A stretch of 59,642 nt of DNA from a virus: the IMG/VR virus record IMGVR_UViG_3300037248_000128, positions 1 through 59,642 of that record; one strand, 5' to 3'. The notes under the pieces are model-generated. The model saw only the letters and a program-made list of their open reading frames with translations, searched no databases and was not told where the DNA came from. The position numbers were made by a program, and so were the translations under genes. Below, piece by piece: positions 2,568 to 11,903 of this stretch. Positions within the stretch are counted from its first letter, which is position 1. Every line of letters begins with the position of its first letter.

Positions 2568-2770
2568 AGCCGCCGCCAGCGGTCGGGCGACCAGCGCTCA
2601 AACCCACGTTCGATGCTGCCTCGAAGCCACGCTGCATCTTCCTGCGACCAGTACATCTTAGCCGTCTGATAGCGCATCTTGCCGGTCCAGTGGTCTGCCC
2701 AGCGGCGCTGACCCATGACCCACATGCCGGACTTGGGCGCGGTTTCCATCGACTCCCACAGATATTTCAC
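2564..2770 (-). CDS. Small DUF551-like phage protein
   Basis: A 68-residue tryptophan-rich protein beginning with a WESMETAPKSG stretch. Short phage proteins of the DUF551 type typically carry a W-x-x-METAPKDG opening, so a family link is likely but not certain. GTG at 2770 overlaps the upstream TGA (GTGA). The family has no firm function. A related-looking segment occurs at the far right edge of the window (59322-59522). Confidence 0.68.
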   Translation of the reverse strand: MKYLWESMETAPKSGMWVMGQRRWADHWTGKMRYQTAKMYWSQEDAAWLRGSIERGFERWSPDRWRRL

Positions 2771-3318
2771 AGCCCGTAATACTCCCGCGTCCCCTCGACT
2801 GGCGGCTCGATCGGCAGCTCGTCTTCGATGTCCTCGATCGTCGGCTCTGGCGGTTCGGCCTGCGCTTCGTCTTCGGGGACGAGTCTGTGAGTCACGACGC
2901 GGCCGGCGCAGTGGGAGGTGTGCTTGATGGCGAGGGCAACAGTTTCAGCGGCGGAGCAGCCGGCGAGCAGGCAGGCGTAGGCGAACTCGTGGCAGGAACC
3001 CTCGACAGCGAACGGCGCGTCCGATCTTTCGCGTTCGTACTTGTTTCGGATCAGGAAAATCTCGCCCGCCGGATTGACGAGCACGGCGCCGAACTCGTCC
3101 TTCTTCTCGCATGGCTCGGGCTTTTTGTCGGGCGGGAAGCCCGCCAGGGCCCATTCCTTGTAAGCTTGGATGTAAACGACATCGCCTGCGCAGCCTAGGA
3201 GCGATCCGTCTGGAAGGCGGATCACCTTGTCCGTTGTCTCGTGGACCATGACGTAATCAGTCGCCCAGACGCCTGTGTCGCAGCACATCTCGCCCGCGCG
3301 CCAAACGATAATCGTCAA
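2767..3318 (-). CDS. HslV/proteasome-like Ntn-hydrolase family protein
   Basis: A 183-residue protein. The N-terminus TIIVWRAGEMCCDTGVWATD and the following KVIRLPDGSLLGCAGD match the pattern of HslV and proteasome beta-type N-terminal nucleophile hydrolases, which read as Thr-initiated strand, acidic residue, then K-x-x-x-LPDG-x-x-xG-x-AGD. The start is TTG at 3318: it has GGAGGTGGA six bases upstream, overlaps the previous gene as TTGA, and would place Thr2 as the exposed nucleophile after Met removal. The C-terminal 30 residues are acidic and Pro-rich. In cells such enzymes need an unfoldase; none is encoded here. A capsid or host-protein protease role is possible, but catalysis is not proven. 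Confidence 0.75.
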   Translation of the reverse strand: MTIIVWRAGEMCCDTGVWATDYVMVHETTDKVIRLPDGSLLGCAGDVVYIQAYKEWALAGFPPDKKPEPCEKKDEFGAVLVNPAGEIFLIRNKYERERSDAPFAVEGSCHEFAYACLLAGCSAAETVALAIKHTSHCAGRVVTHRLVPEDEAQAEPPEPTIEDIEDELPIEPPVEGTREYYGL

Positions 3319-3482
3319 GGCTCCACCTCCAGCACCGGCAGCAATATCTGCCGAATCACCTCTGCCTCGGAGATCCCGAGTCGCGCCGCCCGCCGCTTCA
3401 GCGCCTCCGCAGCCGCGCGCTCGACCGTCGCCTTGATCTCGGCGTCCTTGCGGTCGTCCTTGCGGGAGCCGCGGGGCGGCAT
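3315..3482 (-). CDS. Small RHH-like DNA-binding protein
   Basis: A 55-residue basic protein, not long enough for many gene finders. The pattern of a strand (DAEIKATV), a helix with AAAEALKRRAARLG, and a second helix ISEAEVIRQILLPVL is that of ribbon-helix-helix proteins such as the MobC or CopG type. ATG at 3482 directly follows the stop of the 125-residue gene, and its TGA overlaps the TTG of the Ntn-hydrolase gene. Probably a transcriptional regulator or DNA-bridging factor. Confidence 0.66.
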   Translation of the reverse strand: MPPRGSRKDDRKDAEIKATVERAAAEALKRRAARLGISEAEVIRQILLPVLEVEP

Positions 3483-3860
3483 TCAGAACGCGAGTCCCAT
3501 CCCGAACAGCCGACCGATTGGACTCCAGCAGATTTTGCCGGTGCGCTGGTAGTAGCGGAGCATCTTCACCGCCCGCGCCGCCATCTCCTTGCCTTGCCCC
3601 GACCAGTTGAGTATCGGCCATTCGAGGTACGCGCGTCGGCTTTGTCTGCGCGACATGCCCAAGCGGGCGCCGATTTCGGTTTCTGAGTAGCGCCACCATT
3701 CCATGCCCAGCGTGCGGGCCGCCATGCCCATGACGCACACCGATGGATTGTGCATATCGAAGTGGTCGCCGTGGCGCTCGATGAACGCGATCACCTTCGG
3801 CACATTGTCCACGCGGCCGATTTCCCGCGTGTAGACGACTTCAGCCCCATCAAACGGCAT
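3483..3860 (-). CDS. Hypothetical protein with HTH-like segment
   Basis: A 125-residue protein of unknown family. Residues around 63-80 (SETEIGARLGMSRRQSRRAY) look like a helix-turn-helix, as in sigma-region-4 or MarR-type domains. The N-terminal part has a strand-helix pattern without catalytic motifs. Tight packing with its neighbours suggests a regulatory gene of the leftward operon. The HTH reading is inferred from pattern alone. Confidence 0.68.
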   Translation of the reverse strand: MPFDGAEVVYTREIGRVDNVPKVIAFIERHGDHFDMHNPSVCVMGMAARTLGMEWWRYSETEIGARLGMSRRQSRRAYLEWPILNWSGQGKEMAARAVKMLRYYQRTGKICWSPIGRLFGMGLAF

Positions 3861-10086: not shown

Positions 10087-10362
10087 TCACGGCTCCCTCC
10101 GCTCGACAGGTGGGCGCATGAACTCGCGCCGCACCAGTTCGACGAAATGGGGGTCAATCGGAATGCGATTGTCGAGCACGAGTTTCAGCATGGGCATGGG
10201 CGTTTTCCACCGTCGCGTCCGCAAAAGGCTCCGAACCGCCGAGTCGATACGGTCCATGCGCCGCAGCGCCGCCTCGTCTTCGTCCGACATCTCCACATGG
10301 TCCGGCGTCATCCCGTGGGCATCCCAAAGGCGTCGCATCGTTGCATTCGGATGCTCGCTCAT
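10087..10362 (-). CDS. Hypothetical protein, 91 aa
   Basis: A 91-residue protein with acidic N-terminal helices and a basic C-terminal half (LLRTRRWKTPMPMLKLVLDN). No known domain recognised. ATG at 10362 overlaps the TGA of the tRNA-bearing gene upstream (ATGA). Confidence 0.66.
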   Translation of the reverse strand: MSEHPNATMRRLWDAHGMTPDHVEMSDEDEAALRRMDRIDSAVRSLLRTRRWKTPMPMLKLVLDNRIPIDPHFVELVRREFMRPPVERREP

Positions 10363-10820
10363 TCCTTCGGCGCCTTCTTCTGCCAGTCGAACCAGTCCTT
10401 CGCCTCCGCGTCGACCCAGATCTCACGGTCGCCATCGTAGCCTTTGAGCTTCCGAAACACCGCCAGCGGGGCTCCCGTACGGCCGTCGGTACCCATCGTC
10501 TTCGTCACCATGCCAATAGGCCGCGTGGTACGCCCGGCTGGGCTCGAACCAGCAACCAGACCGTTATGAGCGGCCGGCTCTACCTCTTGAGCTACGGGCG
10601 CTTCGTCGACCGCATCCATCGGATCGATCTTCGGCGCGGCCTTCGCGACAGGCGGCGGCAAAATCGGCGTCTTCGATAGCGCCTTCTTCCCCGAACCCAG
10701 TCCAGCCTCAATCAACTCCACAATCGCGGCCATCCGAGAGCCAGTCCCACGCCAAACCTCAAGGCGCTCAAACACGCTCGCCGGTATCTTCACCAGAACC
10801 GAAACCCGCGCCTCCGCCAT
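10359..10820 (-). CDS. RHH-like protein whose frame contains a tRNA gene
   Basis: A 153-residue frame. Residues 4-45 read as a ribbon-helix-helix: strand ARVSVLVKIPA, helix SVFERLEVWR, helix SRMAAIVELIEAGL. A Pro/Ala linker follows, then residues about 74-98 are the in-frame translation of a complete tRNA gene on the same strand (10526-10601), and finally a charged segment ending DWFDWQKKAPKE. Both ends are tightly coupled to neighbours: ATG 10820 overlaps the previous TGA as TGATG, and the stop overlaps the next ATG. This argues for one gene spanning the tRNA. The alternative is an RHH gene whose original end was replaced by a tRNA insertion. It may autoregulate the boxes at 11233-11304. Confidence 0.6.
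   Translation of the reverse strand: MAEARVSVLVKIPASVFERLEVWRGTGSRMAAIVELIEAGLGSGKKALSKTPILPPPVAKAAPKIDPMDAVDEAPVAQEVEPAAHNGLVAGSSPAGRTTRPIGMVTKTMGTDGRTGAPLAVFRKLKGYDGDREIWVDAEAKDWFDWQKKAPKE
10526..10601 (-). tRNA. tRNA with anticodon CAU (Ile2 or elongator Met)
   Basis: A 76-base cloverleaf including an encoded CCA. The acceptor stem GCGCCCG pairs with CGGGCGU (one G1-U72 pair), D stem GCUC/GAGC, anticodon stem GGCCG/CGGUC with loop CUCAUAA (CAU at 34-36), five-base variable loop, T stem GCUGG/CCAGC with loop UUCGAGC, discriminator A73. The anticodon stem lacks the three G-C pairs of initiator tRNA. The C4-G69 and C5-G68 pairs are those reported as TilS identity elements in E. coli tRNA-Ile2, so a lysidine-modified tRNA reading AUA is more likely than elongator Met. 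Confidence 0.93.
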
Positions 10821-11221
10821 CAGGTCCAATCCCCGTATTTGACCGGTTGCACCCGATCACCTGTCGCATATCGCGGCGTCGGGTCATGCGCTCCCGCGCT
10901 CATCGTCCTGATCCGCCCCTCGGCGTTCAGCAGCGCGCCTTCATAAATCGCCTGGATGACCCGATGATCAAAGACGAGCTTTCCCGTCCGACCGTGAGTC
11001 TCTTCGGCAAACGACCGCGACCGGTAGACCAGAACGTCGGCGATCTTTCCGAGCGACCGAAGCGCCTCGCGCGCCCACGCCCGCTCCTTTTCGGTCATCA
11101 CCACGAACGCGTCGCCGTCCTCAAGCAGCTTCATCGCCGCAGTCGAGCGACCAGTCTGACGACACGCATCCTCGTAGACCCGCATCCCCACCATCGCAGC
11201 CGCTTTGATCCCGAAGTCCAC
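10820..11221 (-). CDS. First gene of leftward operon, unknown function
   Basis: A 133-residue protein. TGRSTAAMKLLEDGDAFVVM resembles phage proteins with a degenerate nucleotide-binding start, followed by a helical stretch and LVFDHRVIQAIYEG, a pattern seen in small phage NTPase-like proteins. A proper Walker A (GxxxxGKT/S) is not present. GTG at 11221 is the start, with GGGAGAG eight bases upstream. It is transcribed from the box-rich promoter at 11233-11304. Confidence 0.7.
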   Translation of the reverse strand: MDFGIKAAAMVGMRVYEDACRQTGRSTAAMKLLEDGDAFVVMTEKERAWAREALRSLGKIADVLVYRSRSFAEETHGRTGKLVFDHRVIQAIYEGALLNAEGRIRTMSAGAHDPTPRYATGDRVQPVKYGDWT

Positions 11222-11232
11222 CCGTCTCTCCC

Positions 11233-11304
11233 ATATATACGTATATACGACAGACCATATATACGGACGCCATATATACGGGTGTCAAGCGGTTTCGTAT
11301 ATAC
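11233..11304 (-). promoter_or_regulatory. Leftward promoter with five GTATATAC-type boxes
   Basis: Five eight-base boxes read ATATATAC or GTATATAC on the plus strand at 11233, 11241, 11257, 11272 and 11297. GTATATAC is a perfect palindrome. A consensus -35 TTGACA lies at 11288-11283 on the minus strand, and TA-rich sequences in the next boxes (around 11265-11258) can supply the -10. Boxes overlap and flank the promoter, as for operators of small RHH or XRE repressors. The first gene starts 12 bases downstream of the last box. Confidence 0.65.
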
Positions 11305-11903
11305 GGGCGATTTTTGGGACGGGTCTAAGGTGACGCCCTCGCGCCGTTCAGGACCGCGACCCAACGCCCGGCCGATCCGCGGCGCCTGCTCGAGCCCTGC
11401 CTGGCCGCAACGCCTTGCAGAACAAGGGTTTGCGCGGTTCTGCATGCTGAGTCGCTTGTGGTCGCGTGAGCTGGCGATTAGGAATGCTTTACGCTGTAAC
11501 GGTCGCGTGAACTTCGCGTCTAATCTCGTTTATGCGCACCGTTATCAGGCATTCGCAGGCCTGCTTTGAGCCTTCGCTAAGTCGATCCGCCGCGCGTCGA
11601 TTGCTCTACGATCTAAGCGGCTTTCTGACGGCTCGGTTAGTCTTGCTCGCATTGCGGTGCAGCGACGGCGTTACTTGCTGGCGCAATGCCGATGCTAAGC
11701 GAAATGGCGACGCGTGGAAAGCCGGTGGCGTCGTACCGCTATTCCCTCGCCTCTCACACGTACGCGCGTGTACGCGTAGCTATGCGTACGAACGGCTATG
11801 CGAAACGGCTAGCGCTTCGGTTTGTTTAGGCTGAAGGGAGGTTGAGAGGTGGGAGGATAGGCCTGAAGCTCGGAGATTGCTGGTTAGGCTTACGTTTGCG
11901 GCG
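11305..11903. other. Non-coding, repeat-dense spacer
   Basis: About 600 bases with no convincing gene; the frames that exist on both strands lack sensible composition or start sites. It holds short repeats, for example AACGGCTA at 11791 and 11804, GTACGCG twice near 11760-11775, an ACACG/CGTGT inverted pair and two GGTCGCGTGA-like words near 11460 and 11505. It separates two leftward units and could hold an origin, a regulatory RNA or transcription signals. Confidence 0.5.

What the first reader, a model, noticed from the sequence alone, without database searches (positions are those of the whole stretch)
10359..10820. A complete tRNA gene lies inside a protein-coding frame on the same strand
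The 76-base tRNA at 10526-10601 is canonical and its bases are read in frame by a 153-codon gene that overlaps its neighbours by one and four bases. RNase P and tRNA 3-prime processing would cut the mRNA in the middle of this gene, separating the first two cistrons from the rest of a long operon. This could be a switch: tRNA maturation removes the regulator's complete mRNA.
Basis: partly seen in the sequence, partly recalled or inferred. Interest (0 to 1): 0.78.

Follow-up and report, generated by a model that had tools for sequence, protein, structure and literature searches.

The report
tRNA gene nested in phage protein gene
A phage carries a complete transfer-RNA gene inside the reading frame of a protein gene on the same strand, so one stretch of RNA can become either the tRNA or part of the protein; the same trick recurs in other phages, most clearly in the disordered link between the two halves of a DNA-replication enzyme.

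Summary
A canonical tRNA(CAU) with encoded CCA lies at 10526-10601(-), inside the open frame 10359-10820(-), which overlaps its neighbours by 1 and 4 bases. The open frame alone is weak evidence (about 3% by base composition), but codon bias is coding-like in the same frame on both sides of the tRNA (C-terminal part above 0 of 2074 null windows; N-terminal part in the top 2%).

The wider result is that this is recurrent. In eight distinct IMG/VR phages (nine contigs) of a DNA primase-helicase family (phrog_3022), one or two tRNAs, CAU and/or Gln(UUG) in either order, are nested in frame on the same strand inside the replication gene. In the modelled case they coincide exactly with the disordered interdomain linker (residues 291-342). 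Relatives with an empty linker exist, and the nested tRNAs keep their cloverleaf by compensatory changes. Fusion-like cases occur in L083 and L187.

The published precedent is tRNASec nested in selB (Mukai 2021), which already proposes mutually exclusive tRNA or protein output. Regulation (the "switch") is untested. I judge this a new variant of a known kind.

The parts
10526..10601 (-). tRNA(CAU), 76 nt including encoded CCA; probably tRNA-Ile2 (AUA-reading) rather than Met
   Evidence: ARAGORN; RF00005 57.7 bits; 55/76 identical to E. coli ileX against 48 for metT/metU, C4-G69 and C5-G68; pairs covary across related tRNAs
10359..10820 (-). Open reading frame of 153 codons that contains the whole tRNA in frame
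   Evidence: codon bias on both flanks in the same frame
10602..10820 (-). N-terminal part (73 codons): possible ribbon-helix-helix domain (about residues 4-43) then Pro/Ala-rich stretch
   Evidence: PHROG 4738 'transcriptional repressor' E 0.014; strand-helix-helix in a low-confidence single-sequence model; codon score 0.22 bits/codon, top 1.9% of null
10359..10525 (-). C-terminal part after the tRNA (about 55 codons), no known relatives
   Evidence: codon score 0.44 bits/codon, above 0/2074 null windows; no relatives
10820..11221 (-). Upstream gene, 133 aa, unknown; its TGA overlaps the ATG of the tRNA-bearing gene by one base
   Evidence: no family match
10087..10362 (-). Downstream gene, 91 aa, unknown; its ATG overlaps the TGA of the tRNA-bearing gene (ATGA)
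11231..11306 (.). Five copies of a 12-nt repeat around TATATACG just upstream of the operon; probable operator array
   Evidence: the only copies (up to 1 mismatch) in the 59.6-kb record, 0.42 expected by chance, 1 of 100 shuffles reaches 5
11283..11288 (-). TTGACA hexamer inside the repeat array, possible -35 box
   Evidence: read in sequence; the consensus promoter scan did not call a full site

Best explanation
It is a nested, dual-use gene. One leftward phage transcript carries an orphan protein gene whose middle codons are a complete, working-type tRNA(CAU). Ribosomes that reach the unprocessed transcript read the tRNA as a 25-26 residue unstructured linker joining an RHH-like N-terminal part to a C-terminal part. 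Transcripts that fold and are cut by RNase P and the 3' processing enzymes give the tRNA instead, leaving a non-stop 5' piece and a 3' piece without the first start. Protein and tRNA are therefore alternative products of one RNA. Such insertions persist where the protein tolerates a floppy insert (interdomain linkers, gene ends) and only in a stop-free frame of the tRNA. Shown: the tRNA, the open frame, coding bias on both sides in frame, recurrence in other phages, and selection on tRNA structure in the nested set. Inferred: translation through the tRNA, processing from this transcript, mutual exclusivity. Not shown: that the partition is regulated.
For: tRNA calls by two methods. Codon bias on both flanks in one frame. 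Overlaps with both neighbours. Independent parallels: of 27 primase-helicase loci, 9 contigs (8 distinct phages) carry tRNA-CAU and/or tRNA-Gln in frame, in both orders, and 18 have empty linkers. The chance of the open frame by composition is 6e-25 (L207) and 1e-15 (L180). Every nested tRNA-CAU is read at offset 0 and every nested tRNA-Gln at offset 2. AlphaFold2 of L207 (22-sequence alignment, mean pLDDT 83): the only long segment under 50 is residues 291-342, exactly the two tRNAs, between folded primase and helicase domains. Compensatory changes: CAU set 99.3% of cells paired, 14/21 pairs changed on both sides; Gln set 98.0%, 16/21; no shuffle reaches these. On the primase tree the empty/nested state needs 5 changes, at least 2 forced. 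Further cases: L083 (305-aa ORF) and L187 (RHH-like start, tRNA-CAU, tRNA-Arg, C-terminal part in one 189-aa ORF).
Against: No homologue of the window's protein exists in the collections searched, so conservation of the frame across the tRNA cannot be tested here. The open frame alone is only P about 0.03, and tRNA-CAU has an intrinsically open frame 0 in most cases (49 of 69 different sequences). The RHH assignment is weak. A 76-nt tRNA is not a multiple of three, so flanks had to compensate. No expression data.
Confidence: 0.7

Rival explanations
1. Two separate small genes flank the tRNA. The first (RHH-like) lost its stop and runs through the tRNA by accident; the second is translated from its own start (ATG codons a few residues after the tRNA). 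The fused protein is incidental.
For: ATG codons follow the tRNA closely (PIGMVTKTMG). L187 and L083 look like gene-tRNA-gene fusions. Small genes ending inside tRNA-CAU are seen in L171/L183/L216. tRNA-CAU frame 0 is usually open.
Against: No clear Shine-Dalgarno sequence before the internal ATGs (read in sequence). Both coding parts share one frame. The primase cases show that true single-protein nesting exists.
Confidence: 0.2
2. Chance frame: the stretch 10359-10820 is a non-coding tRNA locus in a high-GC genome and the ORF is spurious.
For: Openness P about 0.03. Chance frames of 149-201 aa span tRNA arrays in the related G015 record. The antisense strand is open too.
Against: Codon bias on both flanks; overlaps with both neighbours; otherwise a 460-nt gap in a tightly packed operon.
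Confidence: 0.08
3. Regulated switch: tRNA maturation is controlled (by infection stage, translation rate or tRNA demand) and thereby turns the protein and downstream cistrons on or off.
For: Geometry: cleavage would separate promoter-proximal cistrons from the rest. Mukai 2021 (PMC8124441) proposed the same logic for selB/selC. The operator-like array suggests a regulatory operon.
Against: No data on processing. No enrichment of AUA or CAA codons upstream of the nested tRNAs compared with empty-linker relatives, so a codon-starvation feedback gets no support. Patchy gain and loss in primases suggests tolerance more than an essential control.
Confidence: 0.25
4. The element is a tRNA-like mRNA structure (binding site for a synthetase or RNase P) rather than a source of tRNA.
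For: tRNA-like elements in mRNAs are known (general knowledge; also mentioned in PMC8124441).
Against: Complete canonical features including encoded CCA, T-loop and anticodon loop; anticodon invariant in the aligned CAU set.
Confidence: 0.07

Closest known systems
selC (tRNASec) nested inside the selB ORF of Alphaproteobacteria (Mukai 2021, PMC8124441)
   Same: Entire tRNA on the same strand inside a protein ORF, read in frame; stop codon of the ORF overlaps the next gene's start; processing would give a non-stop mRNA; proposed mutually exclusive tRNA/protein output.
   Different: There a chromosomal tRNASec forms a C-terminal extension and is usually 93 or 96 nt. Here ordinary elongator tRNAs (CAU, Gln) in phages, 74-76 nt, internal between coding parts, one or two per gene; hosts are an orphan RHH-like gene and the primase-helicase.
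tRNALys within cox1 of the Armadillidium vulgare mitochondrion (Doublet 2015, as cited in PMC8124441)
   Same: Whole tRNA in direct orientation inside a coding region.
   Different: Mitochondrial compaction; different processing machinery; the original paper was not read here.
Phage-encoded tRNAs and tRNA arrays (e.g. tRNA-Ile2(CAU), arrays of 18-27 tRNAs in relatives G019 and G015)
   Same: Same kind of tRNA, carried by phages, thought to supplement rare codons.
   Different: Those lie in clusters; the ORFs across them are chance.
phrog_3022 primase-helicase of Pseudomonas phage 73 / Kakheti25 type
   Same: Same protein family as the nested cases (E 6.6e-230).
   Different: Among named phages the top matches to a nested linker stop at the helicase side; no named phage with the tRNA at this site was seen.

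Membership tests
Canonical tRNA gene (RF00005) | Cloverleaf with conserved D/T-loop and anticodon-loop bases, CCA end | tested here: met
   T8, A14, G18G19, TTCGA, CCA read in sequence
Canonical tRNA gene (RF00005) | Matured and aminoacylated in the cell | not testable with these tools
   needs RNA from infected cells
tRNA-Ile2 (CAU, lysidine) | Acceptor stem C4-G69, C5-G68 and closer to ileX than to elongator Met | tested here: met
   (55 vs 48 identities); that these pairs are TilS determinants is from general knowledge
tRNA-Ile2 (CAU, lysidine) | Lysidine at C34 and Ile charging | not testable with these tools
   biochemistry needed
Nested tRNA genes of the selB/selC kind | Entire tRNA inside a same-strand ORF in an open frame | tested here: met
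Nested tRNA genes of the selB/selC kind | ORF stop overlaps the next gene's start | tested here: met
   ATGA at 10359-10362
Nested tRNA genes of the selB/selC kind | Nesting conserved in related genes | tested here: inconclusive
   no relatives of the window gene; met for the primase-helicase parallels
Nested tRNA genes of the selB/selC kind | tRNA length usually a multiple of three | tested here: not met
   76 nt (CAU) and 74 nt (Gln); not an absolute requirement in the paper either (95-nt cases), so the claim made here is 'works like', not 'is a selB/selC-type locus'
Ribbon-helix-helix regulators | Significant profile match to an RHH family | tested here: inconclusive
   no Pfam/NCBIfam match; PHROG repressor E 0.014; low-confidence strand-helix-helix

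The most novel reading that the evidence does not exclude
Phages repeatedly place elongator tRNA genes in frame inside linkers of their own protein genes, including the replicative primase-helicase, as a processing-dependent switch: RNase P cleavage makes tRNA and at the same time splits or silences the protein, coupling translation supply to replication or regulator dose.
Probability: 0.25. Interest if true: 0.88.

Novelty: new variant of a known kind. Interest (0 to 1): 0.7.

Why it matters
Same-strand nesting of whole tRNAs in bacterial protein genes was, to its author in 2021, a first and concerned one special tRNA at a gene end. Here ordinary elongator tRNAs sit inside phage genes, in the middle of a replication enzyme, with empty-site relatives for comparison. 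That gives a clean system to ask how one RNA is shared between RNase P and the ribosome. It also means that annotation pipelines that forbid tRNA/CDS overlap will cut real phage genes or drop real tRNAs.

Tried and rejected
Relatives of the window gene: N part, C part, upstream and downstream genes scanned in IMG/VR and the N and C parts in GTDB genomes: none. Phages related by major capsid protein (80 loci) share terminase-side genes but not this cluster. A weak G017 match to the tRNA segment has stops and no tRNA: noise. Codon-feedback idea (AUA or CAA enriched before the nested tRNAs): no difference from empty-linker relatives. Integration-site idea (tRNA as attP): the tRNA lies inside the record in an operon and no integrase was recognised among the genes scanned (not every ORF was scanned). 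Single-sequence AlphaFold2 of the window protein was too poor to search (pLDDT 40). Literature searches for tRNA nested in phage genes found nothing beyond Mukai 2021; subscription journals are not covered.

Full report
WHAT IS THERE. The window is an IMG/VR phage record of 59,642 bases. ARAGORN and Rfam both find one tRNA, at 10526-10601 on the minus strand, anticodon CAT, with a complete cloverleaf and an encoded CCA. It lies wholly inside the minus-strand frame 10359-10820 (ATG to TGA, 153 codons plus stop). The ATG shares one base with the stop of the 133-aa gene upstream, and the TGA overlaps the ATG of the 91-aa gene downstream by four bases.

IS IT MORE THAN CHANCE. The tRNA can be read in only one frame: U8A9G10 stops frame 1 and U36A37A38 stops frame 2. 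The gene uses the open one, but this frame is intrinsically open in most tRNA-CAU (49 of 69 different sequences). Given the record's GC content, the open flanks have P about 0.03. In a related phage (G015/L151), plainly accidental frames of 149-201 aa run across tRNA arrays, so openness alone proves little. Codon usage is stronger evidence. With a model trained on 14 long genes of the same phage, the 53 codons after the tRNA score 0.44 bits/codon (0 of 2074 wrong-frame windows as high). The 73 codons before it score 0.22 (1.9% of null windows as high), and the tRNA codons score -0.12. Coding-like sequence therefore continues in the same frame on both sides of the tRNA. I take the gene as probably real.

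WHAT THE GENE IS. The N-terminal part reads like a ribbon-helix-helix regulator, but the support is weak (PHROG repressor profile E 0.014; strand-helix-helix in a low-confidence model). Upstream of the operon, at 11231-11306, are five copies of a TATATACG repeat, the only ones in the record up to one mismatch (0.42 expected). A TTGACA hexamer lies among them. This would suit an autoregulated promoter, which is inference. No relative of either half of the protein, or of its neighbours, was found (halves also 75, 81), and capsid-related phages lack the cluster. The tRNA resembles E. coli ileX more than metT/metU (55 against 48 identical positions) and has C4-G69 and C5-G68, so it is more likely tRNA-Ile2 for AUA than Met. 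AUA is rare in this phage (16 of 319 Ile codons in the training genes).

THE PARALLELS. A pattern scan of IMG/VR for this tRNA found two AT-rich contigs (36-37% GC) where a tRNA-CAU sits inside frames of 794 and at least 513 codons. Chance of such open runs by composition is 6e-25 and 1e-15. The protein is a DNA primase-helicase, phrog_3022 (E 6.6e-230). Twenty-seven related loci were fetched. Nine contigs, eight distinct phages, carry tRNAs in frame in the linker between primase and helicase: CAU then Gln (L219, L225), Gln then CAU (L222, L224, L242), CAU alone (L220), Gln alone (L228, L231, L232). Eighteen have no tRNA there. L219 is the same contig as L207, and L220 the same as L180. Every nested CAU is read at offset 0 and every nested Gln at offset 2. 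AlphaFold2 on a 22-sequence alignment models both domains well and leaves residues 291-342 below pLDDT 50; that stretch is exactly the two tRNAs. On a tree of the primases without the linker, nested against empty needs five changes, with at least two forced by well-supported branches: the tRNAs come and go.

THE NESTED tRNAs ARE STILL tRNAs. In the CAU set (13 sequences: nine nested, including the window, and four free) 99.3% of stem cells are paired and 14 of 21 pairs changed on both sides, against 7.4 in shuffles. In the seven nested Gln tRNAs the figures are 98.0% and 16 of 21. No shuffle reached the observed values, and sliding the partners destroys the signal. The cloverleaf is maintained while the frame stays open.

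OTHER CASES. L083 has a 305-aa frame with the tRNA-CAU between two coding-looking parts. L187 has an RHH-like start, tRNA-CAU, tRNA-Arg and a C-terminal part in one 189-aa frame just upstream of a terminase-like gene (the terminase reading is by eye). L187 is the nearest architectural parallel to the window. These two may be gene-tRNA-gene fusions.

HOW IT PROBABLY WORKS. Unprocessed transcripts can be translated through the tRNA, which then encodes a flexible linker. Folded transcripts can be cut by RNase P and 3' enzymes, yielding tRNA and destroying that copy of the message. Insertions survive where the protein tolerates a disordered insert. Mutual exclusivity per transcript follows from established tRNA processing. 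That the partition is regulated is not shown, and one specific version, feedback by AUA or CAA demand, has no support from codon placement.

COMPARISON WITH WHAT IS KNOWN. Mukai 2021 (PMC8124441) reports tRNASec nested in the selB ORF of Alphaproteobacteria, with the ORF's stop overlapping the next start, and proposes the same mutually exclusive processing. The author calls it the first nested tRNA gene in a bacterial protein ORF, and cites a mitochondrial tRNALys inside cox1. The present cases differ in being phage genes, ordinary elongator tRNAs, internal to the protein, sometimes paired, and in a replication enzyme. Hence a new variant of a known kind. My literature search is limited to open-licence papers.

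LIMITS. No expression data; the window gene has no homologue; all parallels are metagenomic, though they come from many separate assemblies. Whether the window's C-terminal part is fused to the N-terminal part or started separately is not settled.

Noticed in passing
L155:10857-10933(-) and L155:10380-10453(-) (record G024): A relative by capsid protein carries a tRNA with anticodon CUA (amber-reading) and a second tRNA that ARAGORN cannot assign a normal anticodon; a possible suppressor tRNA in this phage group.
   Followed up: no
L139:10418-10493(+); L154:11719-11793(+): tRNAs called with four-base anticodons (GCTG, TAAA) in capsid-related phages G025 and G019.
   Followed up: no
G015 (L151) and G019 (L154): Capsid-related phages carry arrays of 27 and 18 tRNAs while most relatives carry none: very uneven tRNA load within one phage group.
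   Followed up: partly
L171:1155-1230, L183:3557-3632, L216:1403-1478: A small zinc-ribbon-like ORF of 92 aa runs in frame through a tRNA-CAU near its 3' end, resembling the selB/selC layout.
   Followed up: no
L246 (OP712479.1 34868-37431): Pseudomonas phage PSV3 primase-helicase locus is annotated as several hypothetical proteins and is about 240-480 nt longer than in relatives, by steps near 121 nt between records.
   Followed up: no
window 11231-11306: Five TATATACG repeats, the only ones in the phage, overlapping a TTGACA hexamer upstream of the operon.
   Followed up: partly
window 2767-3738(-): Gene matching PHROG 'peptidase HslV family' (E 1e-26) in the phage.
   Followed up: no
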